NCBI GenBank assembly: GCA_903882805.1
Contig: CAIRYK010000006.1
Coordinates: 62,001-126,000, forward strand
Reading direction: 5' to 3'
Length of the DNA: 64,000 nucleotides
Source of the DNA: an uncultured Bacteroidota bacterium
Lineage (GTDB): Bacteria; Bacteroidota; Bacteroidia; Chitinophagales; Chitinophagaceae
The notes under the pieces were generated by a model. The model was given only the letters and a program-made list of their open reading frames with translations, ran no database searches and was not told the DNA's origin. A program made the translations under genes and the position numbers. Of this stretch, positions 36,910 through 64,000 are shown piece by piece (position 1 is the first letter of the stretch; every line of letters starts with the position of its first letter).

Positions 36910-39900
36910 ATGAGAAAATTGTACAACAGCCTTAGATTACTACTCGTTATTTTATTAGGCGCTATCGGCAATGCATCTGCTCAGAGTACCATTTCTTATG
37001 GTTATACAGGCGGACTGCAAACCTATGTGGTGCCGGTAGGTATAGAGCATGTTATTGTTAATGCCAAGGGGGCGTCTGGCGGTTACAATTCTCGGCCTAC
37101 AGTATTGCTCGATAGTCCTGGTCACGGGGCTTGCGTAGTATGTACGCTTACCGTTTCTGTAGGTCAGGTGCTTAATATATATGTAGGTCAGAAAGGCGGC
37201 GACGGCACAACTGCAGTCGGCGGCGCGGGCGGTTACAACGGCGGCGCTGCAGGTGGACACGGTGTGTCATCTATCAACTCAGGCGGCGGCGGCGGCGGCG
37301 CGAGCGATATTCGCGTAGGCGGCGTTGCTTTGGGCAATCGTGTTATTGTTGCCGGCGGCGGCGGCGGCGCAGGTCTTAACTGCGGATTGAACAACGATAA
37401 GGGCGGCGACGGCGGCGGCACTACTGGTCAGAACGGTAACTTCTGTATTCCGGGTTCAGGTACCAGCAGCGCAGGCGGCGGCGGTACGCCATCGGCAGGC
37501 GGCGCAGGCGGTACTTGTACCAGCTGTACACCATCTACTCCGTCATCAGCTGGTACTTTGGGCACAGGCGGTTCAGTTGTATCTGGCGCTGCCGGCGGCG
37601 GCGGCGGCGCAGGTTATTATGGCGGCGGCGGCGGCCAGTGGAATGGCGGCGGCGGCGGTTCATCTTATACTGATGCCACATTGGTTTCTGGCGTTACTCA
37701 TACACGCGGTTGCCAAACCAACAGCGATGGCTTAGTTACAATTACTCCAATATGCACGGTGCCTGCTATAACAGGTACTATGAACGTTTGTATGGGGCTT
37801 ACTCAAACACTTGCAAATGGCTATACCGGCGGTACATGGACAAGTAGCAATACTGGTCTTGCAACAGTTGGTTCGCTCGACGGCGTTGTTACCGGCGTAT
37901 CAGCAGGTTCGGTTTTCATTACGTATACTTATGGTCCTTGTCAGGTTACAACACCTTTTGTTGTTAATCGCCTGCCATTGCCTATTACAGGGTCAGACAG
38001 CGTTTGCGTAGGTCTGACAACCGATCTGAACGATGTGGACGGCACAAGTACATGGACCAGCAGCAACACTGCTGTTGCAACAATAGGTTCTTCTACAGGC
38101 ACTGTAACCGGCGTTACAGCAGGTACTTCACTTATTACGTTTACCGCGCCTATTACAGGTTGTATCATCACGCGTACCATGCGCGTAGATCCGTTACCCG
38201 GACCAATAACCGGTATGGATAGTATATGCGAAGGCTCAACCACAATATTAGGCAACTCAGCTGCCGGCGGAACGTGGGCTACAAGCAATATAGGTATTGC
38301 AACTATTGGCACTACGACCGGAGATATTACCGGCGTATTCCGAGGCACAGTTACAGTAACTTACACATTACCTACAGGTTGTATAATGACGCGCACCGAA
38401 CGCGTAGATCCGTTGCCATTGCCGATAGCCGGCGTGCCGATTGTTTGCGTTGGCCTGACTACTACGCTAACCGATGCCGGCGGCGGAAGCTGGACAAGTT
38501 CAGACCTGACGGTGGCTACAGTAGGCAGTTCTACTGGTATCGTTACCGGCGTTCATGCAGGTACTGCCGTTGTTACCTATACTTTACCAACTACCTGCTA
38601 TATAACTACTACAGTATTGGTAAACCCATTGCCAGGACCAATACGCGGCGGCGATAGCTTGTGTGAAGGATTGACATTTACTCTTACTAACGATTCTTTA
38701 TTCGGTACATGGACCAGCAGTAATACTGCCATTGCAACCATAGACATTACAACCGGCGTAGTAACCGGCGTTATGGGCGGTACAGTAACTATTACCTATA
38801 CTTTGCCAACAGGTTGTATATCTACATTGCCATTGCGTATTAACCCTCTGCCGGCAACTATTACCGGCCCGCCAACAGTTTGTCGCTACAGCTCTATTAC
38901 GTGGACTAGCGCTACTCCGGGCGGCATATGGACAAGTAACGATATTTCCATTGCCACAGTAGGTACGTCGACAGGGGTTATCACCGGGGTAACTGCAGGC
39001 ACGGCAATTATTACCTATACATTGGCCACGGGTTGTAAATTAGTTGCAGCCTTACTTATTCATCCATTGGCGGTAATAGTAGGACCTTCTGCAGTATGCG
39101 CAACAGATTCTATTTTGCTTACTGACTCTGTGAGCGGCGGAATATGGACAAGCAGCAATTTGTTAAGAGCGCTGGTTGATCCTGTAACAGGTAGGGTTTA
39201 TGGCATATCAGCAGGCCTTGTTCATATTACTTACACATTGCCTACCGGATGTTTCTCAACACATTCAGTAACAGTTAATCCACTTGATCCGATCACTGGT
39301 ACAAGCCGCGTGTGCGTTGGCCTTACAACAACGCTTGGTAACGTGAATCCAGGCGGGTTCTGGACAAGTAGCGATCTATCGATCTGTACCATTGGCTCAT
39401 CAACGGGTATAGTAACTGGGGTTGCCGAGGGTACCGCTACAATAACTTATACATTACCTACAGGTTGTACCTCTTACCTTACTTTTAGCGTAGACCCATT
39501 GTCGCCTATTACTGGTACAACATCTGTATGTGTGGCATTAACGACAACACTTGCAGACGCTACTCCGGGCGGACTATGGACCAGCGGTTCGACGGCGGTA
39601 GCTACAGTTGATGCTTTCGGCGTTGTTACCGGGGTTAGCTTCGGTACTGCAGTTATTACTTATCACCTACCAACGGGTTGCGAAGCCTATACTACTGTAT
39701 TTGTTAGCCCTCTTGCTGCAATTGGCGGCACACCTCATGTATGCGAAGGACTTACTACAACCCTTACCGATGCAGTAACTGGCGGATTATGGAGCAGTAG
39801 CGATGATTTGATAGCTACAATAGGATCTACAACCGGTATTGCAACAGGCGTAGTGGCAGGTACGGCAATTATCACTTATTCATTGGGTACTGGCTGCGCA

Positions 39901-42900: not shown

Positions 42901-44703
42901 GTAGGCGCTGGTCCGGGGCTGGGCGACGTAACAGGCGTATCTGCCGGTACAGCCATCATAACTTACTCATTAGGTACAGGTTGTACGGCGGTGACTACTG
43001 TAACCGTACTACCGCAACCGATTGCGTTAATAACTCCGCTGAGCGACACATTTGTATGTCCGGGCGACTTCGTAGAACTTACGGCATCAACCGATCCTGT
43101 TTATACCTACCAGTGGTACAATGGCGCATTGCCAATAGCAGGCGCTACCAATGCTACTTACACAGCTCCTGACGTAACCACAAATTATAGAGTAGTCGTA
43201 ACATCGGGCTCCACAGGTTGTAGCAGAACGTCTACGCCAATGAATGTAATAGTAAGTCCGGTTACAGCAACAATTACTACACCGGGCGGCACAATAGGTT
43301 GTGCCCGCACAGGCATCGTATTGAACGCTAATATAGGTGCAGGTCTTACTTATCAGTGGGAAGAAAGCGGTATCCCAATATCTGGCGCTACCGGAGCTAC
43401 CTACACAACAACTGTTACCGGTACATTTGATGTGCGCGTAACAAATGCTACAGGTTGCTCTGCAACTTCTTTGCCGCAACCTATTACAATTAATCCTTCG
43501 CCAACTGGTTTGGTAACGCTTTCAGGACCTTTAACCTTCTGCGCTAATGATACACTGAAACTTACTGCAGAGTCGGGCGCTGGCCTAACTTACCAATGGA
43601 GCAACTTGGGTGGTCCGATACCCGGTGCAATCGATAGCGTACTGTATGTAACCACAGGTAATACCTATAGAGTGACAGTTACTAATTCGTTTGGTTGCAC
43701 AACTACGTCTGCAAACATAGTAGCGGTTACGAGAGGTATTCCTTCGGCCACCATTACTGCTGTAGGTTCGCTTGCATTCTGTACAGGCGGCAGCGTAACG
43801 TTAAGCGCACCAGGCGGTCCAGGTTTGTCTTATCAGTGGTATAAGAACGGAACTATAATTGCTGGCGCAGTAGGTGCTGTATATGTAGCTACTACCACGG
43901 GCGATTATACAGTACGTGTAACTAATGGTTTTGGTTGTGTAGTAACTACACTTACGCCAACATCTGTAACAGTATTGTCTGTACCGACTGTTGTACCAAT
44001 TACTCCTAAGTCGTTCTGCTGGGGCGGTAGCTCACGTCTTTCAGCTGTGGTTGTCGGTTCAACATCATTGATAACTTACCAATGGTACTTTAATGGTTCA
44101 GCAATACCCGGCGCTACAAGCAGCACCTATAATGCAAATGTACCCGGCGACTATAGCTGCGACGTTTATGCGCCAACTGGTTGCTTCCTGTCGAGCTTAC
44201 CTGTATCAGTTACAGAGAATCCGCTGCCAAACCCAAGAATTACTTTCGACGGCATGGTGTTCCATACGGGTACTTTCTACAGAACCTATCAGTGGTATAA
44301 GAATGGCATTGCTGTTGTAGGCGGTACTACATCTGCTACACCTGCTACTGGCGATGGTAGCTACAAAGTAGGCGTAACCGACTCAAACGGTTGTCAGTCG
44401 ATATCTGATATTTACGTACTTACCGGCTGGAGCGCACTGCACAATGTAGGCGTAGGTACAGTAGCGAATAATCTGGGTGTGATAACAATATTCCCTAACC
44501 CTGCACAGGATGTGGTTAATATTGAATCGCCTGAAGAAGTTCGCGCAGTAATAACATCTATAGACGGAAAAGAGGTAATGAGAAAAGACAATGCCAAACA
44601 ACTCGATATCTCAACTTTTGCGAATGGTATATACATCATCAAGTTATACGATGCAAATGGCCAAATGGTGAAAACCGACAAGCTGCTGAAAACATCGAAA
44701 TAG
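36910..44703 (+). CDS. Giant T9SS-secreted BIg2-like repeat protein with glycine-rich head
   Basis: 2597 residues. Order: signal peptide (about 1-25, ending SAQS). A glycine-rich domain (about 28-275) opens with a beta segment (TYVVPVGIEHVIVNAKGASG) and contains GGGGGGASDIRVGG and RVIVAGGGGGAG, resembling the ALK/LTK-type glycine-rich family. Twenty-four BIg2-like repeats averaging 73 residues follow (285-2036), each with a V-C and a T-G-C cysteine and W-(T/S)-S plus V-A-T-(I/V)-G. Six Ig/PKD-like repeats with YQWYKNG come next (2037-2507), then a T9SS tail with TIFPNPAQD (about 2522-2597). It is expected to be a very long surface or released adhesin/matrix protein. It ends at a strong terminator. 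No catalytic domain was recognised. Confidence 0.88.
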   Translation: MRKLYNSLRLLLVILLGAIGNASAQSTISYGYTGGLQTYVVPVGIEHVIVNAKGASGGYNSRPTVLLDSPGHGACVVCTLTVSVGQVLNIYVGQKGGDGTTAVGGAGGYNGGAAGGHGVSSINSGGGGGGASDIRVGGVALGNRVIVAGGGGGAGLNCGLNNDKGGDGGGTTGQNGNFCIPGSGTSSAGGGGTPSAGGAGGTCTSCTPSTPSSAGTLGTGGSVVSGAAGGGGGAGYYGGGGGQWNGGGGGSSYTDATLVSGVTHTRGCQTNSDGLVTITPICTVPAITGTMNVCMGLTQTLANGYTGGTWTSSNTGLATVGSLDGVVTGVSAGSVFITYTYGPCQVTTPFVVNRLPLPITGSDSVCVGLTTDLNDVDGTSTWTSSNTAVATIGSSTGTVTGVTAGTSLITFTAPITGCIITRTMRVDPLPGPITGMDSICEGSTTILGNSAAGGTWATSNIGIATIGTTTGDITGVFRGTVTVTYTLPTGCIMTRTERVDPLPLPIAGVPIVCVGLTTTLTDAGGGSWTSSDLTVATVGSSTGIVTGVHAGTAVVTYTLPTTCYITTTVLVNPLPGPIRGGDSLCEGLTFTLTNDSLFGTWTSSNTAIATIDITTGVVTGVMGGTVTITYTLPTGCISTLPLRINPLPATITGPPTVCRYSSITWTSATPGGIWTSNDISIATVGTSTGVITGVTAGTAIITYTLATGCKLVAALLIHPLAVIVGPSAVCATDSILLTDSVSGGIWTSSNLLRALVDPVTGRVYGISAGLVHITYTLPTGCFSTHSVTVNPLDPITGTSRVCVGLTTTLGNVNPGGFWTSSDLSICTIGSSTGIVTGVAEGTATITYTLPTGCTSYLTFSVDPLSPITGTTSVCVALTTTLADATPGGLWTSGSTAVATVDAFGVVTGVSFGTAVITYHLPTGCEAYTTVFVSPLAAIGGTPHVCEGLTTTLTDAVTGGLWSSSDDLIATIGSTTGIATGVVAGTAIITYSLGTGCAAYLTLTVDISPLPVTGTDSLCVGLTTLFSDATFGGTWSSSDVGVAFVNPLSGVITGTGAGTAIITYNMPGACISTRSVTVNPLPAAITGTTSVCLGYTTTLSDATTGGAWTSSNYGTGDIDVATGVVTGVGVGTAIITYTLPTGCIATTIVTIQPVPAAITGTFAVCVGQTTTLSDATPLGTWTSSDIAVATVGLGTGVVTGVASGTATITYTVTSTGCFALSTVTVNPLTPITGTLRVCVGDASTLSNVTGGGEWSSSNTFVATVGSTSGVFTGVNAGTATISYILPTGCMATITVSVSPLPAAIAGVTTICVGLTSTLTDATGGGTWSSSDIAVATIGSLTGTVTGLFAGTAIITYRVTTTGCYVTTIATIYDLAPIVGVRRLCLGETTTLTDPAPGGTWSSGNIGVATIGSATGDVVAVGVGTSIISYTLPTGCRSVMTLTVNPLPFFIAGPTSVCENATITLTDVTGSGPGFLWSSSDIAVATIGSISGVVNGVAAGTSTITFTVASTGCYRTTTLTVNPIPAAIGGPSTVCQFSTVTLTDASAGGTWTSSNTAVGTIDNTTGDLYGVTAGTTTITYAFTATGCYITTSVTVYPVPAITGPTAVCEGSTITATESIGGGTWSSSDDLTATIGSTTGVITGVVAGTVTITYTFTTGCIALETVTVHPLPSAISAPIATTCQGSSITFTDPTPGGTWSSSDILVATVGSLSGVVTGTGGGTATITYRLATGCYTTTIVNINPVTPITGIFRVCIGLTTDLNDATPGGTWSSSNTAVGTIDAAGIVTGISVGTTVITYMLPTGCSAQRTVTVNPLPLAITGPTVVCTGSTITLSDPSGAGTWTSSNIGVATVGSLTGVVTGVGAGTAIITFTLPTTCIAVVTVTVNASPAAIAGSSSVCYNLSTTLTDATPGGVWSSSNTGVATIGSLSGVVFGVSVGTTVITYAMPNGCYRTLNFTVNSLPSAITGATFIVCAASTIRLSDATTGGVWTSSNIGVATVVGAGPGLGDVTGVSAGTAIITYSLGTGCTAVTTVTVLPQPIALITPLSDTFVCPGDFVELTASTDPVYTYQWYNGALPIAGATNATYTAPDVTTNYRVVVTSGSTGCSRTSTPMNVIVSPVTATITTPGGTIGCARTGIVLNANIGAGLTYQWEESGIPISGATGATYTTTVTGTFDVRVTNATGCSATSLPQPITINPSPTGLVTLSGPLTFCANDTLKLTAESGAGLTYQWSNLGGPIPGAIDSVLYVTTGNTYRVTVTNSFGCTTTSANIVAVTRGIPSATITAVGSLAFCTGGSVTLSAPGGPGLSYQWYKNGTIIAGAVGAVYVATTTGDYTVRVTNGFGCVVTTLTPTSVTVLSVPTVVPITPKSFCWGGSSRLSAVVVGSTSLITYQWYFNGSAIPGATSSTYNANVPGDYSCDVYAPTGCFLSSLPVSVTENPLPNPRITFDGMVFHTGTFYRTYQWYKNGIAVVGGTTSATPATGDGSYKVGVTDSNGCQSISDIYVLTGWSALHNVGVGTVANNLGVITIFPNPAQDVVNIESPEEVRAVITSIDGKEVMRKDNAKQLDISTFANGIYIIKLYDANGQMVKTDKLLKTSK
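37201..37680 (+). repeat. GGC-codon tracts encoding the polyglycine segments
   Basis: Several pure (GGC) runs occur, for example six copies at 37282-37299 and five at 37354-37368, with more to about 37660. Glycine here is encoded mostly by GGC rather than mixed codons. Slippage would change length in steps of one glycine without breaking the frame. Confidence 0.7.
37762..43017 (+). repeat. Array of 24 BIg2-like repeats (about 219 bp each)
   Basis: Residues 285-2036 divide into 24 units; the whole 1752-residue span equals 24 x 73. Units start with P-x-x-I-x-G, have the first cysteine at about position 11 and the second at about 62 (within L-P-T-G-C), and end in V-N-P-L or close variants. Individual units vary by one to four residues. 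Sequence between units is diverged, so the array is old and under selection rather than freshly amplified. Confidence 0.85.
43018..44430 (+). repeat. Six tandem Ig/PKD-like repeats of about 80 residues
   Basis: Each unit has a first cysteine (F-V-C, I-G-C, T-F-C, A-F-C or S-F-C; the last unit lacks it), a central Y-Q-W stretch, then G-A-x-x-x-x-Y and a closing cysteine (TGC or FGC). This type is common before T9SS tails. It differs from the BIg2-like units in having Tyr-Gln-Trp rather than Trp-Ser-Ser. Confidence 0.75.
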
Positions 44704-44725
44704 TGTTGTTGAATATTTAATATTG

Positions 44726-44758
44726 AAAACGGCTGCCAGAATGAGGCAGCCGTTTTTA
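44726..44758 (+). terminator. Terminator of the first giant gene
   Basis: aaaacggctgcc (44726-44737) pairs with ggcagccgtttt (44745-44756) over 7 bases, with a T-run continuing. It begins 23 bases after the stop. Confidence 0.88.
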
Positions 44759-44919
44759 TATGGGGTGGTGGAAAATTATTTGATTGCTGATAGGATACTA
44801 CTTCAAGTGTTCTTTTGGTTTATCGTCCATTTTCACTGATTCGTCGCCTTTTTTGCCCTGTTTACCGACAAGGCTCCGTATTTTGCCGAAATAAATTTTA
44901 CAATCTGTTTACACAAAAA

Positions 44920-44927
44920 TAGATTTG
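44920..44927 (+). promoter_or_regulatory. Candidate -7 element for the TonB-receptor gene
   Basis: TAGATTTG fits TAnnTTTG, 21 bases before the ATG, giving a predicted leader of about 15 bases. Confidence 0.5.
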
Positions 44928-44948
44928 CACTCAAATTAGCTTCTACCC

Positions 44949-47195: not shown

Positions 47196-47222
47196 GCAAC
47201 AACCAACATAAACATAAAAGCA

Positions 47223-47873: not shown

Positions 47874-47905
47874 GCGCGCTGTATATTATAGACAAATAAG
47901 ACTAA

Positions 47906-52351: not shown

Positions 52352-53038
52352 ATGAAAAGTATAGCGCTACTATTTTTTTTAACAGTTTGCTCTTTTCTGG
52401 GTTTTGCTCAGGATGGTAGCAATACCATTATTACCCTTTATGGCGGGGGCGGACTGGCTACCAGCAACAACTACGATGTGGCCATTTCGGGCGGAATAGC
52501 TTTTCATAAGGGTCTCGTTTACCGTACGGGCATTGGCGTAGCATTGTTTTATCAGGGTTACAGTATACTTTCAGACAAAGAAGCCTATGGCGTAACCGGC
52601 GGTACCGGCAATGCGGGAATGGTTGTGTATAATAAGAGTAGTTATGTATTTGTTTGCCCACGTTTTTACCATGGTATAGGCAAGGGTGAAACATTCAAGT
52701 TTTTTCTGGGCGGCGGCGTTGGTTTCAACATGGGCGGCACAGAAACCATGCGTAAGTGGGATAAAAGCCACGGCGCCAGTGTGGGCAACTATGATAGTAC
52801 CATTACTACCACAGCCAACATCAATAAAATGGTGTTTCGCGTAGGCTTTGGTTTTGAAGAGCACATACATCTGGGCGGTAAATGGTGGATGACCGTAATA
52901 GAAGATTTTGGCTTTTTAGGCAACCCAATAAGCAAAACCGGCGATGTAGACTATGCAAGCCGCACTTTTTATAGCCCTGCACCTATGAAGCCGGGCTACA
53001 TATCGCTGCAACTGGGCATCACCCATTCTAAATTTTAG
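52352..53038 (+). CDS. Outer-membrane barrel protein, tandem paralog 1 of 3
   Basis: 228 residues: signal peptide (about 1-20, ending GFAQ), then beta-strand alternation with conserved points shared with the next two genes. These are a GGG-x-x-T near the N-terminus (here GGGGLATSNN), a central SYVFVCPRFYHGIG.GETFKFFLGGG and a C-terminal GYISLQLGITHSKF ending in Phe. The terminal aromatic and strand pattern indicate an outer-membrane barrel of about eight strands. Ligand unknown. Confidence 0.78.
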   Translation: MKSIALLFFLTVCSFLGFAQDGSNTIITLYGGGGLATSNNYDVAISGGIAFHKGLVYRTGIGVALFYQGYSILSDKEAYGVTGGTGNAGMVVYNKSSYVFVCPRFYHGIGKGETFKFFLGGGVGFNMGGTETMRKWDKSHGASVGNYDSTITTTANINKMVFRVGFGFEEHIHLGGKWWMTVIEDFGFLGNPISKTGDVDYASRTFYSPAPMKPGYISLQLGITHSKF

Positions 53039-53059
53039 TGTCTCAAAAGAAAGTAGCGT

Positions 53060-53716
53060 ATGAAACGATTGTGTGTCTTGGGGCTACTTTCACTGTTTCC
53101 TTTTTTGGGCATGGCGCAAGGCGCTTATGGCGTACAATTGGGGATTGGGCGCACCACGGCTTACAATTCGCGATTTACAACCACGGTCAGCGGTTTTTAT
53201 ATGGCGCGGCTTAGTCCGCGTATATACCTGGGCGGAGAATTAGCTATACAAAAATACTCATTTACCTACGAGGCGGGTCTTTCTGCGCCTGCCTATTCCG
53301 ATATTATCAGCGTTTCGCAGAAGAGCTACTATATGTTTGTGTCGCCCAAATTCGATTTAGGCATAGGCTATCACAAGCACGTTCATTTTACTTTTTCGGC
53401 AGGCGCCGGCCTGCTTATGGGCGGCTACCAAAACACCGACCAGCACACCCCGCTGTGGGTAACCAATGGGGTAGGAGTGGGCGCCGACACTATGACCACA
53501 GAAACCACGCGCTACATGCGCAACTTTCTGTACCGCATAGGCGGCGGCATTACAGAGCGTATACCTACCCACGGCTACTGGAGTATAACGCTGAGTCAGG
53601 ATTTTAGTTTCTTGCCTACACGCCTCAACAACGGCGGCGCCAACCTCAATACAAGCTACTTCTGTTTTACGGTAGGCATAATGCATAAGTATCCGCAAAC
53701 GCTGGTAGAGTATTAA
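53060..53716 (+). CDS. Outer-membrane barrel protein, tandem paralog 2 of 3
   Basis: 218 residues. The signal peptide ends near GMAQ. Shared pattern with its neighbours: GAYGVQLGIGRTTAYNSRFT, then RIYLGGELAIQKYSFTYEAG, SYYMFVSPKFDLGIGYHKHV and FCFTVGIMHKYPQ. The gap to paralog 1 is 21 bases, so the two are probably in one transcript. Confidence 0.78.
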   Translation: MKRLCVLGLLSLFPFLGMAQGAYGVQLGIGRTTAYNSRFTTTVSGFYMARLSPRIYLGGELAIQKYSFTYEAGLSAPAYSDIISVSQKSYYMFVSPKFDLGIGYHKHVHFTFSAGAGLLMGGYQNTDQHTPLWVTNGVGVGADTMTTETTRYMRNFLYRIGGGITERIPTHGYWSITLSQDFSFLPTRLNNGGANLNTSYFCFTVGIMHKYPQTLVEY

Positions 53717-53841
53717 TAGCAGCGGTTCATTTACTTTACAATTTAGCTATTATCATGCGGCATCATCAGGCGGTTATATCAGTAGTAAGTTAGCCGCCAA
53801 AATAATTAGCGCTATTTTCGACCATAATAATATCTTTAGGT

Positions 53842-54543
53842 ATGAAAAGTACCCTACTCTCTATAATTGCCGCAGTACTGGCTATAGGCGCAAAGGCGCA
53901 GGGCATATATGGCTTTTACGGCGGCGTTAGCGCCACTACTACCTATACCTCAAAAGCCTCGCCCAAGGTAGGTACTACCTATGTGGTGGGCGTAGCTACC
54001 CATGTGTATCTGGGTGGTACCATGTTTACAGAAAACTACGACCTTACTAATTACGACAACCATTTTGCGCAGTTTGGCGGGCCGGCTTATACCATCACCC
54101 ACAATACTACCTACCTCTATGCAGCGCCCAAGATAGAGGTTGCGATTGGGCATCAAGAGTATTTTCGTTTTTTCCTGAATGGCGGCCCCGGATTTTTGCT
54201 GAGCGGCTCGCAACTTATTACCGCCGACAGACCCTATAACCCTTACGCAGGCGCTCATTCCGGACTTGGCTACGACACTGCCTACACCAACGGCAACATT
54301 ACCACAAAACTATTTCGCATAGGGCTGGGCGCAACCCAGCATGTACCCATTTTCCGCAACTGGGATGTAACCTTTACCGAAGAGCTGGGCCTGCTGCCGG
54401 GCTGGCTGTCTAAAAACACCCAAGGCTACAATGGCGATGCCGCCATGAACATGCGCAGCAACTCTATATCGGTAATGGTAGGCATATCGCACCGATACAG
54501 GTGGGAGCCCATAAAGCCGCGCCGCACCTGGGGCGGGTATTGA
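53842..54543 (+). CDS. Outer-membrane barrel protein, tandem paralog 3 of 3
   Basis: 233 residues. The signal peptide ends near AKAQ. It starts GIYGFYGGVSATTTYTSKAS, then HVYLGGTMFTENYDLTNYDN, then TTYLYAAPKIEVAIGHQEYF and SISVMVGISHRYRWEPIKPR. It is clearly related to paralog 2 (VYLGG/IYLGG, PKxxxxIG) and more weakly to paralog 1. The 125-base gap before it, with TATTTTCG near 53812, may contain its own promoter. An extra basic tail follows the last strand. Confidence 0.78.
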   Translation: MKSTLLSIIAAVLAIGAKAQGIYGFYGGVSATTTYTSKASPKVGTTYVVGVATHVYLGGTMFTENYDLTNYDNHFAQFGGPAYTITHNTTYLYAAPKIEVAIGHQEYFRFFLNGGPGFLLSGSQLITADRPYNPYAGAHSGLGYDTAYTNGNITTKLFRIGLGATQHVPIFRNWDVTFTEELGLLPGWLSKNTQGYNGDAAMNMRSNSISVMVGISHRYRWEPIKPRRTWGGY

Positions 54544-55072: not shown

Positions 55073-55143
55073 GCTATGCTATGCAGGTAGCCATTATTGA
55101 CCGAAATAAAACTTACGTATAAAGTTTAATTAAATAAATAGGC

Positions 55144-58100
55144 ATGAAACAATTCAACTTATTAAGCCAAATCTTTAAAGCGGGTTTGCTGTGCGGTATC
55201 TTACTGGTGTCGGGCATTGCCATAAGCTGGGCGCAGACTGCGCCTACTTACAATGGCGGTCGAAACCAGACATTGTCCGTGTGCCAAAACTCGAGCGGTA
55301 ACAGCATAAACTCGCTGCTGGCAGTAACCGACATAGACCTCGGCAACACGCTTACCTGGACGGCAACACTGGCTCCATCGCATGGATCGCTCAATATTTT
55401 AGGTAGTTCTATATCTACCGGCGGTTCTGTTACGCCTACCGGCAAATCTTATACGCCTGCGCCCGGATATTCCGGCACAGATGTGTTTACCATACAAGTG
55501 TCTGATGGTACCGGCGGCACCGCCCTTACCACGGTTAGCGTTACAGTCAATCCGCTACCGGCGGCAATAGGCGGTTCGCATTCGGTGTGCCATACGGGTA
55601 CAACAACGCTTACCAACGCTATATCCGGCGGCGTATGGAGCAGCAGCCGTACGGCGGTGGCTACCGTAGGTTCGGCTACAGGCCTTGTGAGCGGCGTTGG
55701 CGCAGGCACATCGGTTATCAGCTATTCGCTGGGTTGCGGCACGCCATCATTGTTTACTGTTACGGTTAATGCTTCACCGGGAGCTATTTCGGGCGCAACA
55801 ACGGTTTGTCAGAGCGGTACAACAACCCTTGGCAATGCAGCCCTCAACGGTACCTGGACGAGCGGCGCCACAGGCGTAGCTACGGTAGGCGCCACCAGCG
55901 GCGTTGTTACGGGCGTAAGCGCAGGCACAACTATTATCACTTACAGCAATGGCTGCGGTTTTCCGGCTACGCTTACTATAAATACCATTCCATTGCCCGG
56001 CACAACATCGGGTTCTACGCCTACCTGCGAGGGTAATACTATGACGCTTACCAATACCATTTCGGGCGGCACATGGAGCAGCAGCGATGCGGGTATTGCT
56101 ACCGTAGGTTTGTTTACCGGCGTTGTAGGCGGACTCAGCGGCGGCAATGCTACTATTACCTACAGCACAGGATGCGGCACACCAGCATTGCAAACGGTTA
56201 CTATCGTAGCGACGCCGCGTTCTATCACCGGCCCCATTATAATTTGTCAGGGCGTAAGCACGCTGATGGGCAACAGCGCAGCTGGTGGCACATGGAGCAG
56301 CAGCGCCCCGGGCGTAGCAACAATCAATACTACCAGTGGTTTGCTGACCAGCGTAGCGGGCGGCACTACTACCATCACCTATACAACAGGTTGCGGTACG
56401 CCTGCAACACAGGTGGTAACAGTTACTTCGTTTACGGGTACTATTTCAGGGCCAACATCTGTTTGTCAGACATCAACCATTACGCTTACCAATTCAACTC
56501 CCGGCGGTTCCTGGTCCAGTTCAGATGAATCAATTGGTACTGTAGGTTCTACTTCTGGTATTGTTACGGGTATTGCCGGCGGCACAGTAATCATTAGCTA
56601 TACCAACGGCTGCGGCGCCGTAGCTACACGCACGATATCTGTTATATCATCGCCCGGCGTATTGTCGGGTCCTGCTACAGTTTGTCAGGGCGCTACCGGG
56701 TTGATGACCAGTACAGCGCCTGGCGGCGTATGGCTGAGTAGCGCATCAACCATTGCAACAGTAGGTTCGATATCAGGTATTGTTACCGGCGTTACCGGCG
56801 GCACGGCTACCATAAGTTATGCTACTGGTTGCTTCACAGCGGCTACGCGCACAATATCTGTTATGCCTACTCCAGCTGCCATTGGCGGTGCATCTGTAGT
56901 TTGTCAGAGCGCAACCATAACACTCACCAATACAGTGCCCGGCGGTGTATGGAGCAGCGGCTCTACCGGCATAGCTACTGTAGGTTCTACCGGCATTGTT
57001 ACCGGCGTTAGCGGTGGCGTTGCCAATATTACTTACAGCAATGGCTGTAGCCCCGATGCTGTTAAGAGCGTGTCGGTTACGCCTACTCCGGCGGCAATAA
57101 CCGGCGTTACAACCGTTTGTCAGGGAGCTACAACAACCTTGGCTAACACATCGGGCGGCGGCATCTGGACCAGCGGCGCAACAGGCATTGCTACGGTAGG
57201 CTCGCTTACCGGCGTGGTTACGGGCGTGGCCGGCGGAGTAGCCAATATTACTTACAACAATGGTTGCGGCAGCGCAGCTTCAATAGCTATAACCGTTACA
57301 CCGTTGCCCGCTGCTATAGGCGGCGCATCTGTGCTTTGCCAAAGCGCATCAACTACGCTTACTAATACAGTGCCCGGCGGCATCTGGACCAGCGGCAACA
57401 CAGCAATAGCTACAGTGGGTAGCAGCTCAGGCACAGTAACCGGCATTAGTGGCGGCATAGTAACAATTACTTACAGCAATGGTTGCGGCGCGGGCGTTAC
57501 GCGCACTATGACCATTACTCCCATACCCGCAGCCATAACAGGCAGCGCTACAGTATGTCAGAGCGGCACAACAACGCTGGCCAACACATCGGCCGGCGGC
57601 GTATGGACCAGCGCGGCAACAGGCATTGCAACTATAGGCTCGGCATCGGGCGTTGTGAGCGGCGTAGCAGCGGGTACAGCAACTATAACTTACAGTACAG
57701 GTTGTGGCGCCGCTGCTACTACCGTTATTACAGTAATACCGCTGCCCGGTATAATAATAGGTAACACATCGCTTTGCCAGGGTACTACCACGGCTTTATT
57801 CAATACCGTAAATGGCGGCACGTGGAGCAGCAGTAATACGGCTATTGCCACCATAGGTAGCGTTAGCGGTGTAGTAACCGGTATAGCCGGCGGTCTTGTA
57901 TCGCTTACCTATAGCACGGGTTGCGGAGCGCCGGTAACGCGTCTGGAAACAGTAACCGCAATACCAGATACTATACGTGGAACCTTCGGCGTATGTCAGG
58001 GGTCAACAACAACATTAACTAACATAGTAGGCGGCGGCATCTGGACCAGCGGCGCTACAGGCGTAGCTACAGTAGGCTCGCTTACAGGTGTAGTAACCGG

Positions 58101-61100
58101 AATAACCGGCGGCACGGCAGTTATCACTTATAACAACGGTTGCTTACCTGCAGCTACGCAGGCAGTAACAGTTACGCCGCTCACCGGCGTAATATCTGGC
58201 GCAACTACAGTTTGCCAGTCGGCTACAGTAACGCTTACCAATACAGGCGCCGGCGGTACATGGACCAGCAGCGCAACAGGCGTTGCAACTATAGATGCAG
58301 TAACCGGCGTGGTAACCGGCGTAGGCGCAGGAACAACAACCATAACTTATACCACAGGTTGCGGCGCTCCTGCAACCCGTATCCAGTCAGTTACTCCAAC
58401 ACCGGGTACTATTTCAGGGTCATCGGCATTGTGTCAGGGCGCTACAACTACCTTTACCAACAGCGCAAGCGGCGGTATCTGGACCAGCAGCAACAGCGTA
58501 GTGGCGACAGTTGGTTCAACTACCGGACTGGTTACCGGTGTGAACGGCGTCACAGCTACCATTACCTACAACACAGGTTGCGGCACAGCGGCTACGCTTA
58601 CCCTTACCGTAACACCTGTTCCCGGCGTTATAGTTGGGGCGTTCTCGCTTTGTCAGGGCGGCACAACAACGCTTACTAACTCCGTAATAGGAGGCGTATG
58701 GAGCAGCAGCGTACCTGGTACAGCATCAATCGATTTGAATACAGGCGTAGTCAATGGTATTTCAGGCGGTACAGTAACCATCACTTACAGCACAGGTTGC
58801 GGCACAGACGCCACCCGTATTGAGACGGTGCTTGTAGCGCCATCTGCCATCAGTGGTGCATCTGTAATATGTCAGGGCAGTACAACAACGTTTACCAATA
58901 CTTCGGTTGGCGGTATATGGCTTAGCGCCAATACAGGTATTGCTACAGTTGGTTCGCTTAGCGGCGTGGTAACAGCAGTAGCTGCCGGCGCAACAACCAT
59001 AACCTACACCAATGGTTGCGGCACAGCGGCAACACAGTCTATCTCTGTTACTCCGGTGCCTGCGGCTATTACGGGCGCTACATCTATTTGTTTGAGCTCA
59101 TCATCTACCCTTAGCAACAGCGTACCCGGCGGCACATGGAGCAGCAGCGCTGTTGGCGTTGCCCCTGTAGATCCTACAGGTTTGGTGCGCGCTATAGCCA
59201 TGGGTACAGCAACTATCACTTATTCTACCGGTTGCGGCACACCAGCTACGGCCAACGTAACCGTTGTTAACACCCCCGGCATTATCAACGGCGTTAGCTC
59301 GCTTTGTCAGGGCGCTACCTACACATTCACTAACCCTATCTCGGGCGGTGTGTGGAGCAGCAGCAACACAGGCGTTGCAACTATCGGCTCGGCTTCCGGA
59401 CTTGTTACCGGCGTAACTGCAGGTACGGCATACATTACTTATACAACATCTTGCGGATATACGGTTTCTTCAATAGTACTCACAATTGTTCCCAACGTAG
59501 CCGCTATTACCGGCGCTACAATTGTTTGTCAGGGATCTACAACAACATTGGCCAATACTGCACTTGGCGGTAGCTGGAGCAGTGGTAACACATTTGTTGC
59601 TACAGTAGACAACAGTACGGGCGTTGTAACCGGCGTAAGCGCAGGCACTACAATTATAACGTACAGCACCGGCTGCGGAACACCCGCAACACGTGCAATG
59701 TCTGTTACGCCCATACCCGGATCAATTTCGGGCGGCAGCGTGGTTTGTCAGGCAAGCAGCTTTACCCTTACCAATACAGCTTCGGGCGGTACATGGAGCA
59801 GTAGCAATACTGCAGTGGCCACAGTGGGTTCGCTTACTGGTATTGTAAACGGCATCATTGGCGGTACTACAACCATCACTTACAGTACAGGCTGTGGCAC
59901 AGCGCCAATACAAACAGTATCTGTGACGCCATTCCCGGGTATAATCTCCGGTTCGGCAGTAATTTGCGAAGCATCTACCACTACATATTTCAATACAGTT
60001 GCCGGAGGCACATGGAGCAGCAGCAGTCCCGCAGTAGCTACCATTGGCTCGTTGAACGGTCTTATTACAGGCGTTAGCGGCGGATTGACCAACATCACCT
60101 ACAGCACTGGTTGTGGCACAGCAGCGGTTCGCTCATTGTCGGTAACCCCTGCTACAGGTTCTACATCCGGCGCTTCAGTGGTATGTCAGGGTGCAACAAC
60201 TACACTTACCAATACTGCAACTGGCGGATTGTGGAGCAGCAGCAATACTGGCGTCGCTACTATCGGTTCACTTACCGGTGTTGTTACTGGCGTTTCTGCT
60301 GGAATTACAAGTATTACTTATGGCACAGGTTGCGGCGCAGGTTCTGTAGTTACCATCTCTGTAACAGCAACGCCAGCAGCAATCACCGGCGCATCTTCTT
60401 TCTGTATCAGTTCTACAACATTGCTTGCCGACGCAACGCCTAACGGTACATGGAGCAGCAGTAATACAGCTATTGCTACAGTAGGCACCACTGGTCTGGT
60501 AAGCGGCATGGGCAGCGGCACGGCTGTAATTACCTACAGCACAGGTTGCGGCGTACCGGCTACCCGCACAATGACCGTGTTGCCCGCGCCCGGCATCATC
60601 AGCGGCGTTACTACCCTTTGTCAGGGTAACACAGCAACATTTACCAACCCCATAGCGGGCGGTACCTGGAGCAGCAGCAATACAGGCGTAGCAACCATCG
60701 GTTCAGCTTCCGGCTTGGTAACAGGCGTATCTGCGGGCACTGCAGCAATCACTTATACTACTGTCTGCGGTTATACCGTTTACTCAGTACTACTTACTAT
60801 AATACCAAATCCGGCAGCAATAACCGGAGCATCAACTATATGTCAGGGTTCTACGGTTACGTTGGGTAATACAGCCGTTGGCGGCTCGTGGATCAGCAGC
60901 AATACTGCTGTAGCGACAATAGATAATGCTACAGGCTTACTTACCGGCGTTTCGGCGGGTATTACAAATATTACTTACAGCACAGGTTGCGGCGCGGCAG
61001 CTACACGCACAGAGTCTGTAACGCCTATACCCGGCGCTATATCCGGCGGCAACGTAGTATGTCAGAGTTCAACCTTTACACTTACTAATACAGCCTCTGG

Positions 61101-64000
61101 CGGCACATGGAGCAGCAGCAATATAGGCGTTGCTACCATTGGTTCGCTCACCGGCGTTGTTACCGGCGTGGCAGGCGGCACTACCACTATGACCTACAGC
61201 ACAGGTTGCGGTACCGCACCAATACAAACTGTGTCGGTTACGCCAATCCCTGCCGCAATTGTGGGCACAGCCACAATATGTCAGGGCGCAACAACAACGC
61301 TTACCAATACAGCAGCAGGCGGCACATGGAGCAGCAGCAACACGGCAGTTGCTACTATTGGCGCGCTCAACGGCTTTATGACAGGTATAGCAGGCGGCAC
61401 AGCGATTATTACTTATAGCACCGGTTGTGGCACAGCAGCTACGCGCACAGTATCTGTAACTCCGTTTGCTGGTACAATATCTGGTTCAACGCTTGTTTGC
61501 CAGACAGGTACATCTACGCTCAGCAATACAGCAGCAGGCGGTACCTGGAGTAGCAGCGCATCGACCATAGCCAGCGTAGGATCGCTTACCGGCGTAGTGT
61601 CGGGCTTGGCGTTTGGTACAGCTACTATTACTTACAGCACAGGTTGCGGCACAGCAGCTACAATAGCCGTAACTGTAACTACTACGCCTGGAGGCATAAC
61701 AGGAGCTAATTCAGTTTGCCAAAGCAATATCACAACGCTTACTAACACTATCATTGGCGGCTTGTGGACCAGCGCTAACACAGGCGTTGCAACAATAGGT
61801 TCATCTACAGGCGTTGTCGCCGGTGTAGTTGCAGGCACAACAACTATTACTTACAATACAGGCTGCGGCGCAGCTGCGACACGCACTATGAGCGTAGTAG
61901 CGGCTCCTTCTGCAATTTCGGGCGCATCATTGGTATGTCAGAGCGGTACAATTACGCTTACCAATACATCTGTAAGCGGACTGTGGAGCAGTAGCAACAC
62001 TGCAGCTGCAACTGTTGGTTCTACAACCGGCATAGTGACAGGCGTAGCAGCAGGCATTACCACTATTACTTACAGCACAGGTTGCGGCACAGCGGCTACC
62101 TTCGATGTATCTGTAACGCCAATACCTGCAGCGATAACCGGCGCATCAGCCGTTTGCCAAAGCGCAACAACTACATTTACCAATACCAGCCTTGGCGGCA
62201 TATGGAGCAGCAGCAACTCAGGCGTAGCTTCAGTTGGTTCGTTGAGCGGCGTAGTGTCTGGCGTTTCGGGCGGCAGCGCAACAATTACTTACAGCACAGG
62301 CTGCGGTGTAAATGCTACAAAGGCAATTACCGTAACGCCAACTCCGGCTACGATAAGCGGAGCATCGCCTATTTGTCAGGCAGCAACAGCAACCTTTACC
62401 AATGCTGCGGCAGGCGGTATATGGACAAGTAGTAATACTGCCGTAGCGACTGTTGGATCTACAACAGGCATTGTTACCGGCGTTGCGGCAGGCAATACCG
62501 TTATATCTTACGCAACCGGTTGCGGCACGCCAGCTACTATGACCGTTTCTGTTACTCCACTTGCGGCAGCAATAACCGGAGCGGCAACAATTTGTCAAAC
62601 ATCTACTGCGACATTGAGTAATGCTGCGCTTGGCGGCACATGGAGCAGCAGCAATTCGGCAGTAGCGGCAATAGATTTGAATACAGGCGTGGTAATGGGT
62701 ATAGCAGGCGGTACCGCCACTATTACCTATAACACAGGCTGCGGTACTGCTGCAACGCGCACAGAATCAGTAACTCCACTTGCGGGTACTACTTCTGGCG
62801 CAACTGTGATTTGCCAGGCAACAAGCACAACTTACACCAATACTGCAGCAGGCGGCACATGGAGCAGCAGCAATATTGCTGTAGCAACGGTAGGTTCGCT
62901 TACAGGTATTGTAAATGGTGTGGCGGCAGGAATTGCCACCATTACCTACAGCACGGGCTGCGGCACTGCGGCAACGCAAGACGTATCGGTAACGCCAACA
63001 CCGGCGGCTATTACCGGAACGGCAACAATTTGCCAAGGCGCTACTACAACGTTATCTAACACCGCGCTTGGCGGCATCTGGACCAGCAGCAATACAGGCG
63101 TGGCCACTATCGGTTCGCTGGATGGCGTGGTTACGGGCGTTGCAGGCGGCGCAGTAACAATAACCTACAACACAGGATGCGGAACTGCAGCTACACGCAC
63201 ACAGTCTATTACTCCGCTGGCTGGCGCTATCACTGGTTCGGCAATCATTTGCCAGGGCGCTACAACTACATTTACTAATACGGCGCCGGGCGGCACATGG
63301 AGCAGCAGCACGACAGGCGTAGCTACTGTTGGTTTGCTTACAGGCGTTGTAACTGGCGTTGCCGGCGGCAATACCACTATTACTTACAGCACAGGTTGCG
63401 GAACAGCGGCTACACAGGCGCTTTCTGTAACGCCTATACCTGCTGCTATAACAGGCGGCTCTGCAGTATGTCAGGCAGCTATCCTGAATCTTGGCAACAC
63501 TGCCCTCGGCGGTATCTGGTCTTCATCTAATACCGGCGTAGCTACTGTTGGTTCGCTCACCGGCGTTGTCAGCGGTATCGTTGGCGGTTCAGCTACTATT
63601 ACCTATAGCACTGGCTGCGGCACAGCAGCTACCCAAAACGTAACCGTTACGGCGTTGCCTGGCACAATCACTGGCGCTACCTCTGTTTGTAATCTGGCAA
63701 CAACAACTTATACAAACTCGATTGCAGGCGGTCGCTGGTCAAGTAGCAACATTACTTTTGCCACTGTTGGCTCTGTATCGGGCGTTGTTACCGGAGTATC
63801 TGCCGGCACAGCAATTATCAGTTACAGCACAGGTTGCGGCACGCCGTCAAGTCAAACAATCACCATTATTCCCATACCATCGCCAATAATTACCGGCATT
63901 ACAACCATTTGTCAGGGGTCTACATCTACGCTGGCAAATTCAGCTCCGGGCGGAGTATGGAGTAGCAGCGCTACCGGCGTGGCGACAGTTGGTTCAAACA
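55144..64000 (+). CDS. Second giant BIg2-like repeat protein (partial, 3-prime end outside window)
   Basis: At least 2952 codons with no stop; the frame at the start codon is the frame at base 63999. Order: signal peptide (about 1-31, ending SWAQ), a cadherin-like/BIg9-type domain (about 32-137, with GYSGTDVFTIQVSDGTGG), then 38 complete BIg2-like repeats and part of a 39th. Repeats start P-x-x-I-x-G-x-x-x-x-C-Q, contain GG-x-W-S-S-S-N and V-A-T-(V/I)-G-S, and have T-G-C-G near position 60. A T9SS tail is expected beyond the window by analogy with the first giant protein. The likely role is a very long secreted or cell-surface adhesin (inference). Confidence 0.88.
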   Translation, partial: MKQFNLLSQIFKAGLLCGILLVSGIAISWAQTAPTYNGGRNQTLSVCQNSSGNSINSLLAVTDIDLGNTLTWTATLAPSHGSLNILGSSISTGGSVTPTGKSYTPAPGYSGTDVFTIQVSDGTGGTALTTVSVTVNPLPAAIGGSHSVCHTGTTTLTNAISGGVWSSSRTAVATVGSATGLVSGVGAGTSVISYSLGCGTPSLFTVTVNASPGAISGATTVCQSGTTTLGNAALNGTWTSGATGVATVGATSGVVTGVSAGTTIITYSNGCGFPATLTINTIPLPGTTSGSTPTCEGNTMTLTNTISGGTWSSSDAGIATVGLFTGVVGGLSGGNATITYSTGCGTPALQTVTIVATPRSITGPIIICQGVSTLMGNSAAGGTWSSSAPGVATINTTSGLLTSVAGGTTTITYTTGCGTPATQVVTVTSFTGTISGPTSVCQTSTITLTNSTPGGSWSSSDESIGTVGSTSGIVTGIAGGTVIISYTNGCGAVATRTISVISSPGVLSGPATVCQGATGLMTSTAPGGVWLSSASTIATVGSISGIVTGVTGGTATISYATGCFTAATRTISVMPTPAAIGGASVVCQSATITLTNTVPGGVWSSGSTGIATVGSTGIVTGVSGGVANITYSNGCSPDAVKSVSVTPTPAAITGVTTVCQGATTTLANTSGGGIWTSGATGIATVGSLTGVVTGVAGGVANITYNNGCGSAASIAITVTPLPAAIGGASVLCQSASTTLTNTVPGGIWTSGNTAIATVGSSSGTVTGISGGIVTITYSNGCGAGVTRTMTITPIPAAITGSATVCQSGTTTLANTSAGGVWTSAATGIATIGSASGVVSGVAAGTATITYSTGCGAAATTVITVIPLPGIIIGNTSLCQGTTTALFNTVNGGTWSSSNTAIATIGSVSGVVTGIAGGLVSLTYSTGCGAPVTRLETVTAIPDTIRGTFGVCQGSTTTLTNIVGGGIWTSGATGVATVGSLTGVVTGITGGTAVITYNNGCLPAATQAVTVTPLTGVISGATTVCQSATVTLTNTGAGGTWTSSATGVATIDAVTGVVTGVGAGTTTITYTTGCGAPATRIQSVTPTPGTISGSSALCQGATTTFTNSASGGIWTSSNSVVATVGSTTGLVTGVNGVTATITYNTGCGTAATLTLTVTPVPGVIVGAFSLCQGGTTTLTNSVIGGVWSSSVPGTASIDLNTGVVNGISGGTVTITYSTGCGTDATRIETVLVAPSAISGASVICQGSTTTFTNTSVGGIWLSANTGIATVGSLSGVVTAVAAGATTITYTNGCGTAATQSISVTPVPAAITGATSICLSSSSTLSNSVPGGTWSSSAVGVAPVDPTGLVRAIAMGTATITYSTGCGTPATANVTVVNTPGIINGVSSLCQGATYTFTNPISGGVWSSSNTGVATIGSASGLVTGVTAGTAYITYTTSCGYTVSSIVLTIVPNVAAITGATIVCQGSTTTLANTALGGSWSSGNTFVATVDNSTGVVTGVSAGTTIITYSTGCGTPATRAMSVTPIPGSISGGSVVCQASSFTLTNTASGGTWSSSNTAVATVGSLTGIVNGIIGGTTTITYSTGCGTAPIQTVSVTPFPGIISGSAVICEASTTTYFNTVAGGTWSSSSPAVATIGSLNGLITGVSGGLTNITYSTGCGTAAVRSLSVTPATGSTSGASVVCQGATTTLTNTATGGLWSSSNTGVATIGSLTGVVTGVSAGITSITYGTGCGAGSVVTISVTATPAAITGASSFCISSTTLLADATPNGTWSSSNTAIATVGTTGLVSGMGSGTAVITYSTGCGVPATRTMTVLPAPGIISGVTTLCQGNTATFTNPIAGGTWSSSNTGVATIGSASGLVTGVSAGTAAITYTTVCGYTVYSVLLTIIPNPAAITGASTICQGSTVTLGNTAVGGSWISSNTAVATIDNATGLLTGVSAGITNITYSTGCGAAATRTESVTPIPGAISGGNVVCQSSTFTLTNTASGGTWSSSNIGVATIGSLTGVVTGVAGGTTTMTYSTGCGTAPIQTVSVTPIPAAIVGTATICQGATTTLTNTAAGGTWSSSNTAVATIGALNGFMTGIAGGTAIITYSTGCGTAATRTVSVTPFAGTISGSTLVCQTGTSTLSNTAAGGTWSSSASTIASVGSLTGVVSGLAFGTATITYSTGCGTAATIAVTVTTTPGGITGANSVCQSNITTLTNTIIGGLWTSANTGVATIGSSTGVVAGVVAGTTTITYNTGCGAAATRTMSVVAAPSAISGASLVCQSGTITLTNTSVSGLWSSSNTAAATVGSTTGIVTGVAAGITTITYSTGCGTAATFDVSVTPIPAAITGASAVCQSATTTFTNTSLGGIWSSSNSGVASVGSLSGVVSGVSGGSATITYSTGCGVNATKAITVTPTPATISGASPICQAATATFTNAAAGGIWTSSNTAVATVGSTTGIVTGVAAGNTVISYATGCGTPATMTVSVTPLAAAITGAATICQTSTATLSNAALGGTWSSSNSAVAAIDLNTGVVMGIAGGTATITYNTGCGTAATRTESVTPLAGTTSGATVICQATSTTYTNTAAGGTWSSSNIAVATVGSLTGIVNGVAAGIATITYSTGCGTAATQDVSVTPTPAAITGTATICQGATTTLSNTALGGIWTSSNTGVATIGSLDGVVTGVAGGAVTITYNTGCGTAATRTQSITPLAGAITGSAIICQGATTTFTNTAPGGTWSSSTTGVATVGLLTGVVTGVAGGNTTITYSTGCGTAATQALSVTPIPAAITGGSAVCQAAILNLGNTALGGIWSSSNTGVATVGSLTGVVSGIVGGSATITYSTGCGTAATQNVTVTALPGTITGATSVCNLATTTYTNSIAGGRWSSSNITFATVGSVSGVVTGVSAGTAIISYSTGCGTPSSQTITIIPIPSPIITGITTICQGSTSTLANSAPGGVWSSSATGVATVGSN
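59059..60153 (+). repeat. Higher-order block A (repeats 17-21 of the second giant gene)
   Basis: Five consecutive units, exactly 1095 bases, share unit-specific deviations with block B at 60373-61467. Unit 1 has C-x-S-S instead of C-Q-G and one residue less (P-T-G-L-V). Unit 2 ends S-C-G-Y-T-V with T-F-T-N-P-I. Unit 3 contains D-N-S-T-G. Unit 4 ends G-T-A-P-I-Q-T-V. Unit 5 has G-S-L-N-G. Confidence 0.8.
60373..61467 (+). repeat. Higher-order block B (repeats 23-27 of the second giant gene)
   Basis: Five units in the same order as block A, offset by exactly 1314 bases (6 x 219). Matching features are C-I-S-S, T-T-G-L-V, V-C-G-Y-T-V with T-F-T-N-P-I, D-N-A-T-G, G-T-A-P-I-Q-T-V and G-A-L-N-G. 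Synonymous differences are frequent, so the duplication is not recent. Confidence 0.8.

What the first reader, a model, noticed from the sequence alone, without database searches (positions are those of the whole stretch)
36910..64000. Two giant BIg2-like repeat proteins on the same strand, with different repeat subfamilies
Within 27 kb there are 24 repeats in one gene and at least 38 in the other, adding to over 5500 codons of repeat-rich secreted protein. The units of each gene resemble each other more than units of the other gene (first gene: V-G-L-T-T-T-L and L-P-T-G-C; second: C-Q-G-A-T-T-T-L-T-N and T-G-C-G). This is the pattern of array-internal homogenisation after an ancient split. 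Giant secreted arrays in Bacteroidota are usually adhesin or matrix candidates, but this paired arrangement with distinct heads (glycine-rich versus cadherin-like) is unusual.
Basis: partly seen in the sequence, partly recalled or inferred. Interest (0 to 1): 0.7.

Follow-up and report, generated by a model that had tools for sequence, protein, structure and literature searches.

The report
Disulfide-stapled giant Ig-domain stalk proteins
Two giant secreted bacterial proteins built from long rows of similar beads turn out to belong to a family of dozens in one genome, and the pattern of paired cysteine losses suggests that each bead is chemically stapled to the next, which would make a stalk that is hard to stretch.

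Summary
Observation confirmed. Gene 1 (36910-44703, 2597 aa) has 24 BIg2-type units. Gene 2 (from 55144) is complete on its contig: 3886 aa, 50 units, of which 38 and most of a 39th lie in the window. Both end in a T9SS sorting domain; the heads differ as described. The pair is not special: 59 unit-bearing ORFs were found in this genome (366 kb, 7.4%; 15 cut by contig ends), and all 35 held genomes of the genus show a like expansion. Compared with each other alone, units cluster by gene; genome-wide, gene 1's units are nearly scattered, while 36 of gene 2's first 39 stay together and none of its last 11. Synonymous sites are close to saturation: no sign of recent homogenisation. The main new point: nearly every unit has two cysteines, and they are kept or lost together not within a unit but between unit i (strand A') and unit i+1 (F-G loop): 987 both, 28 neither, 3 discordant of 1018 junctions; the same in 144 proteins not closely similar to this genome's. 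I infer an inter-domain disulfide daisy chain that takes the domain cores out of the load path: a covalently stapled adhesin stalk. The bond and its mechanics are untested by experiment.

The parts
36910..44703 (+). Gene 1: 2597-aa T9SS-secreted BIg2 array protein
36910..36984 (+). Signal peptide of gene 1, judged by eye, no predictor run
37060..37737 (+). Glycine-rich head of gene 1 (PF12810 ALK_LTK_GRD, residues 51-276)
37759..43008 (+). 24 BIg2 units of gene 1, all with both Cys (column 11 and column 62)
43009..44400 (+). Second, different Ig-like array of gene 1 (about six modules, counted by eye), sequence relative of modules of GhpA (E 2e-24)
44488..44673 (+). T9SS type A sorting domain of gene 1 (residues 2527-2588)
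55144..64000 (+). Gene 2, part inside the window; continues to window coordinate 66804 (contig C6:128804), 3886 aa in all
55267..55545 (+). Big_9 / cadherin-like head of gene 2 (residues 42-134); holds the single head Cys47
55558..64000 (+). Units 1-38 and most of unit 39 of gene 2, second Cys at column 60; units 40-50, cap Cys3784 and T9SS tail lie beyond the window

Best explanation
The two genes encode fibrillar adhesin-like stalks: a signal peptide, an exchangeable head, a long row of 73-residue BIg2 domains, and a C-terminal T9SS sorting domain for export and anchoring. Shown here: domains, tails, genome-wide family, cysteine covariation. Inferred: the Cys in strand A' of domain i (C11) forms a disulfide with the Cys in the F-G loop of domain i+1 (C60/C62), so that consecutive domains are stapled in a daisy chain, closed at the N-end by dropping the unused F-G Cys or using a head Cys, and at the C-end by a lone cap Cys (often 'CR') after the last domain. 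Two interleaved covalent paths (strand G - linker - strand A - disulfide - strand G of the next-but-one domain, about 23 residues per two domains) would then run the length of the stalk; the roughly 50-residue core of each domain is outside the load path and would not be unravelled by pulling. Heads are swapped on this common stalk, and the genes sit at places where relatives have none. Oxidation is expected in the periplasm (a DsbA homologue is present) before export through SprA.
Against: Loss events are partly inherited together: 28 losses in 18 genes form 14 groups at 60% identity, 6 at 55%, 2 at 50%, so p values overstate independence. Same-domain association is also raised in other proteins (OR 56 without P0013; OR 11.7, p 6e-4, after leaving out three Cys-poor proteins), though far less than across the junction. 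Other-genome stretches (470 units) had no paired internal loss and 2 discordant junctions, so they cannot test it. The Cys-Cys pair is only ninth of 5041 inter-unit pairs by mutual information; several above it join equal columns or 57-59 both ways. Tail caps are untidy elsewhere: of 9 arrays whose last unit lacks C11, 4 have no tail Cys, 4 one, 1 two (some counted Cys may be the unit's own). Gene 1 has an odd Cys count (69). VKOR was not found; DsbB was not sought. Adhesion, anchoring and mechanics are inferred.
Confidence: 0.75

Rival explanations
1. Conventional intradomain disulfide: C11 and C62 of the same domain pair and stabilise each bead on its own; the array is an ordinary beads-on-a-string adhesin.
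For: Both Cys are in most units (1017 of 1102), and outside this genome same-domain absence is also enriched.
Against: In this genome losses are independent within a domain (41 and 41 singles, 3 doubles) but paired across the junction (28 pairs, 3 singles); mutual information within the domain is -0.2. Standard Ig topology places the two sites at opposite poles (established knowledge, not measured).
Confidence: 0.08
2. Array-internal homogenisation after an ancient split: each gene's units are kept alike by ongoing conversion or unequal crossing-over.
For: In a two-gene comparison units cluster by gene; gene 2 units 17-22 and 23-28 look like a six-unit block duplication (18/24 81%, 20/26 82% identical); units two apart are more alike than neighbours; gene 2's synonymous differences are slightly under the random expectation.
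Against: No pair with pS below 0.4; gene 1 units scatter in the genome-wide tree; positional orthology is kept in a 94% identical copy and between five paralogous giants (order rho 0.66 to 1.00 in 10 of 10 pairs; a sixth gene tried, C47_6, is not co-linear with them).
Confidence: 0.15
3. The proteins are subunits of a multimeric appendage like the GhpA grappling hook of Aureispira (heptameric, used to seize prey), not single-chain adhesins.
For: Gene 1's second Ig array matches GhpA by sequence (E 2e-24), with Cys at the same two places in the part of the alignment shown; GhpA fragments are among the best Foldseek matches of the BIg2 model.
Against: The profile of the BIg2 array finds no GhpA sequence at E up to 1; nothing here tests assembly or predation.
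Confidence: 0.15

Closest known systems
Fibrillar adhesins with Big-type stalk domains (survey PMC8286594; LigA, intimin as solved relatives)
   Same: Tandem Ig-like stalk plus head domains; Big_2 is named there as a stalk domain (passages read).
   Different: T9SS tail; two Cys per unit that covary between neighbouring units; 59 unit-bearing ORFs in one genome.
GhpA, grappling hook protein of Aureispira sp. CCB-QB1 (PDB 9flp, 9fls, 9flu-9fly, 9g8b)
   Same: Giant protein of many Ig-like modules; its modules are related to gene 1 residues 2034-2497, Cys at the same two places in the aligned part seen. That the hooks are heptamers of a T9SS-secreted protein is from PMC11205867 (passages).
   Different: BIg2 array not matched by sequence; heptameric hook and prey capture are not shown here; the original paper is not held.
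Isopeptide- and disulfide-stabilised Gram-positive pilins (Spy0128, SpaA; recalled, plus titles in the reference list of PMC4458895)
   Same: Covalent cross-links thought to make an Ig-like shaft hard to stretch (recalled).
   Different: Those cross-links are within a domain (recalled); here the inferred bond joins neighbouring domains.
NUP210/GP210 Ig-like arrays
   Same: Pfam Ig_NUP210_16th scores about as well as Big_2; fold match.
   Different: Eukaryotic pore membrane protein; no paired Cys scheme known to me (recalled, not searched).

Membership tests
Pfam Big_2 (PF02368) | Match above the curated cut-off | tested here: met
T9SS type A cargo | C-terminal Por_Secre_tail | tested here: met
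   Gene 1 PF18962 42 bits and TIGR04183 37.3 bits; gene 2 PF18962 44.1 bits
T9SS type A cargo | Signal peptide | tested here: inconclusive
   Typical N-termini by eye; no predictor run
T9SS type A cargo | Genome encodes the T9SS translocon | tested here: met
   SprA, 2444.9 bits; other components not sought
Fibrillar adhesin | Stalk of tandem domains plus a known adhesive domain | tested here: inconclusive
   Stalk met; heads of the two genes are GRD and Big_9, not proven adhesive; a paralogue has a legume-lectin-like head
Fibrillar adhesin | Binds a surface or ligand | not testable with these tools
   needs a binding assay
GhpA-type grappling hook | Sequence relation to GhpA | tested here: inconclusive
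   Second Ig array of gene 1 E 2e-24; BIg2 array not matched at E up to 1
GhpA-type grappling hook | Heptamer with hooked tips, prey capture | not testable with these tools
   needs electron microscopy
Inter-domain disulfide chain | Cys of unit i covaries with Cys of unit i+1 far more than within the unit | tested here: met
Inter-domain disulfide chain | Observed S-S bonds | not testable with these tools
   no coordinates, no protein chemistry
Recently homogenised tandem array | Low synonymous divergence between units of one gene | tested here: not met
   no pair with pS below 0.4 in gene 1 (276 pairs) or gene 2 units 1-39 (741 pairs)

The most novel reading that the evidence does not exclude
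Consecutive Ig-like domains of giant Bacteroidota stalks are covalently stapled by a continuous inter-domain disulfide ladder with start and end caps, giving two interleaved covalent load paths that bypass every domain core: an inextensible single-chain fibre of up to about 65 domains, on which one genus hangs many different heads. The same cysteine places in GhpA modules would make it a general design of T9SS surface fibres.
Probability: 0.5. Interest if true: 0.82.

Novelty: new variant of a known kind. Interest (0 to 1): 0.64.

Why it matters
How single-chain bacterial adhesins bear load without unfolding is a live mechanical question; answers known so far include covalent cross-links within domains (recalled), calcium held in the linkers of RTX adhesins (abstract of PMC7493085 in the listing) and cooperative interfaces with mechanical clamps in SasG (PMC4458895, passages). 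A disulfide that joins each domain to the next would be a further solution, testable with one short recombinant fragment, and readable from sequence alone. It also shows a genome with about 7% of its length in such genes.

Tried and rejected
Rejected: that the pair is a special local arrangement (59 unit-bearing ORFs); that the second gene lacks a tail; recent homogenisation; intradomain disulfides.

Led nowhere or weak: unit trees are poorly resolved (50 of 71 inner branches open; 625 of 1094), so I lean on label counts, not on branches. Stretches from other genera had no paired internal Cys loss. The within-domain couplings 7-65 (z 20), 6-67, 6-65 and 8-70 (z 3-4, columns one lower than) tie strand A' to strand G but do not by themselves fix whether the strands are parallel; that they are is recalled Ig topology. 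VIA-align 2 does not list GhpA among its best 50 entries, which is no evidence either way. Literature: searches gave listings (0, 20 of 87, 0, 4, 2, 20 of 41 papers) in which I saw no inter-domain disulfide described for tandem Ig-like adhesins or T9SS proteins; the library is open-access only, most listed papers were not opened, and the ixotrophy paper is not held under the DOI I recalled. The tree missed reverse-strand loci (14 of 29 rows) and is replaced. One search scored at most 76 matches per genome and at most 150, so I quote first-look candidates for size. One more unit-bearing ORF (C23:994, 976 aa) was seen but not fetched; 15 of the 59 ORFs are cut by contig ends and may be halves of fewer genes. 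Four of the 148 other proteins turned out to be 90-92% similar over long stretches to giants of this genome, so I recounted without them. Gene names of neighbours (SerRS, aminopeptidase, TonB-dependent receptor, 3-hydroxyacyl-CoA dehydrogenase) are by eye, from no family search.

Full report
What is there. The window is C6:62001-126000 of a 4.94 Mb draft genome of 95 contigs. Gene 1 is one open frame of 2597 codons at 36910-44703. Gene 2 starts at 55144, leaves the window open and ends at contig position 128804, 3886 codons in all. Counting one tryptophan per unit gives 24 units in gene 1 and 50 in gene 2; 38 complete units and most of a 39th of gene 2 are in the window. Pfam gives Big_2 and the related Ig_NUP210_16th for both, an ALK/LTK glycine-rich head for gene 1, a Big_9 head for gene 2, and the T9SS sorting domain at the end of both. 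Gene 1 also has a second, different Ig-like array (residues 2034 to about 2497) before its tail.

The pair is two of many. In the stretches fetched around unit matches, 59 ORFs carry units, summing to 366 kb (7.4% of the genome) and 1110 units; 40 have ten or more units, 29 are 2000 codons or longer, the longest 6379 from stop to stop. Fifteen are cut by contig ends, and four more by the ends of my stretches. In a Big_2 search of 60 genomes, all 35 genus members had 61-76 scored matches (76 is the limit) and 150-943 first-look candidates; the 25 others had 0-4 matches and 2-66 candidates. In 195 genomes of the family searched with the sister model, of which 76 rows are printed, more than 100 candidates were seen in 8 genomes of three genera (g1, g28, g112), 49-85 in seven genomes of g38, g67, g69, g70 and g101. 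A SerRS tree puts g1, g28, g112 and the unit-poor g49 in one clade (97/96), its inner order largely unresolved. The neighbours of both genes are conserved in relatives, but the giants are not there: in G004 the two genes that flank gene 1 are adjacent, and in the stretches of 12 relatives around the gene upstream of gene 2 (each reaching more than 3 kb past it) no unit-bearing ORF was found; the only unit-bearing ORF lies near SerRS in G027.

Do units cluster by gene? Among the 74 units alone, yes: 21 of 24 and 46 of 50 have their nearest neighbour in their own gene, and a tree needs 4 changes for gene 1 against a shuffled mean of 20.4. Against 1097 well-covered units of the genome (of 1110), gene 2 stays clustered (36 of 50 nearest neighbours inside, all 36 among its first 39 units; 16 changes against 49.2), but gene 1 does not (5 of 24; 22 changes against 23.8, 15 of 500 shuffles as low). 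The two motif types are two positions of the second Cys; 178 of 1097 units, in many genes, have the gene 2 type, and gene 2 itself switches to the gene 1 type from unit 41 on, unit 44 excepted. Synonymous differences are near saturation: medians 0.73 (gene 1) and 0.68 (gene 2 units 1-39) against 0.75 for random codons, no pair under 0.4, though the lowest of gene 2 (0.43) is under the random 1st percentile (0.57); the block-like units 17-22 and 23-28 differ by 0.61-0.68. A 94.0% identical copy of gene 1 matches unit for unit (0.67 to 1.00), and C41_60, C66_34, C42_199, C8_23 and C19_0 are co-linear with each other (order rho 0.66-1.00 in 10 of 10 pairs; a sixth gene, C47_6, is not; gene 1 against gene 2 rho -0.10). 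So there was an old expansion of one subfamily inside gene 2, and whole-gene duplication elsewhere, not recent homogenisation. Units two apart are a little more alike than neighbours (even minus odd lags 0.0146; 300 shuffles mean 0.0003, largest 0.0043), as if pairs of units were duplicated.

The cysteines. Column 11 is Cys in 96% of 1097 units, columns 60 and 62 together in 95%. Units that lack one come in pairs: unit i lacks C11 and unit i+1 lacks the second Cys. Over 1018 junctions: 987 both, 2 first only, 1 second only, 28 neither (OR 13818, p 3e-51). Within a unit (1102 scored of 1110): 1017, 41, 41, 3 (OR 1.8, p 0.42). The third option, second Cys of i with C11 of i+1: 952, 28, 31, 7 (OR 7.7, p 2e-4). 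Two of the three exceptions are array ends with a 'CR' cap. The 28 losses are in 18 genes, 14 groups at 60% identity, 6 at 55%, 2 at 50%, so they are not 28 independent events. In 115 database proteins (119 fetched, minus two of this genome, one near-identical to gene 1, and P0013 with its Cys-free run): 4354/1/6/11 across the junction, 4495/23/35/0 within. In 148 proteins of two searches: 5601/2/5/85 against 5785/39/64/63; without P0013 5587/2/5/46 against 5770/39/63/24 (OR 25700 against 56). Without four proteins close to this genome's giants: 5465/2/5/83 against 5645/37/61/63; without three proteins with many lost junctions as well (141 left): 5393/2/5/22 in 15 proteins (OR 11865, p 2e-54) against 5572/34/56/4 (OR 11.7, p 6e-4). 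So same-domain association is not nil outside this genome, but discordant cases are 7 across the junction and 90 within. Mutual information over 5856 adjacent pairs shows the same direction: Cys-Cys z 3.6 (reverse 0.07, within -0.2) and the residues beside them z 6.4 (reverse 0.1); the largest directional excesses are 13 to 62, 70 to 59 and 10 to 61 (columns, where the Cys are 10 and 61). Cys-Cys is ninth of 5041 inter-unit pairs; most above it join equal columns or 57-59 in both directions.

Ends of the chain. First units that start at residue 16-60 lack the second Cys in 6 of 6 (own genome) and 8 of 11 (others); after a head in 4 of 48 and 1 of 99. Arrays that end 60-130 residues before the C-terminus: of 18 whose last unit keeps C11, 15 have exactly one Cys in the tail, 2 two, 1 three; of 2 that lack it, none has one. 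Others: of 5 that keep C11, 4 have one and 1 two; of 9 that lack it, 4 none, 4 one, 1 two. Gene 2 has 102 Cys after the signal peptide: one in the head, 100 in the units, one in the cap, which is 51 pairs. Gene 1 has 69, so at least one is left over.

How it most likely works. Shown: T9SS sorting domains; SprA in the genome; a DsbA homologue (VKOR not found). Heads vary on a common stalk: of 20 paralogue heads scanned, 14 have a Pfam match at E up to 0.001 (10 of them above a cut-off), among them glycine-rich, Big_9, NHL, legume-lectin-like, M4 and S8 peptidase, GEVED and Ig_7 domains, and 6 have none. Inferred: the daisy chain of disulfides and its mechanics. Chain tracing gives about 12 residues from the second Cys to the end of a unit plus 11 to the next C11, 23 residues per two domains, a contour near the folded length of two domains; pulling then loads strands G and A and the disulfides, not the core. 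The role as an adhesive or matrix stalk is the usual reading of such architectures (PMC8286594, passages).

Relation to known systems. By what it works like, the nearest are stalks of fibrillar adhesins and covalently cross-linked pilins. By sequence, gene 1's second array is related to GhpA modules of the Aureispira grappling hook (E 2e-24), whose aligned part shows Cys at the corresponding places; PMC13319060 describes GhpA as a 5898-residue monomer forming a heptamer (passages) and PMC11205867 the T9SS secretion of the hook protein and ixotrophy (passages). I do not file the window's proteins as grappling hooks. I found no description of an inter-domain disulfide chain in such arrays in the listings, from an open-access library only.

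Noticed in passing
P0013 (3985 aa): About 40 junctions without Cys (39 counted), in very similar alternating units ('SVMIG'/'SVLIG'): a natural staple-free array for comparison, perhaps recently duplicated.
   Followed up: partly
C66:48039-51914 (L045): 1292-codon giant whose first 11 units alternate between missing one and the other Cys, so that only every second junction there could be stapled.
   Followed up: partly
C38:2-3862 (L029): Ten units with mean identity 0.70, two-apart 0.80, the highest of the arrays of five or more units: perhaps a recent expansion.
   Followed up: no
window 52352-54543: Three tandem outer-membrane-protein-like genes (named by eye) just upstream of gene 2; relatives of the first are beside the same neighbour gene in 12 of 12 relatives that lack gene 2 there.
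   Followed up: partly
15 ORFs at contig ends of the genome: Contigs often break inside these repeat genes, so short-read assemblies will miscount and split them.
   Followed up: yes
P0004 against gene 1, unit 6 (residues 648-719): Unit 6 is only 67% identical while the other units are 84-100%; its best match in the genome is still gene 1 unit 6.
   Followed up: partly
C42:143644-145212 (L035): A 523-codon Big_2 protein with a lipoprotein-like N-terminus (by eye) and no Cys in its units, the best-scoring Big_2 match listed for the genome.
   Followed up: no
L009:13932-15659: Multicopper-oxidase-like protein with a T9SS-like tail a little downstream of gene 2; named by eye, not searched.
   Followed up: no
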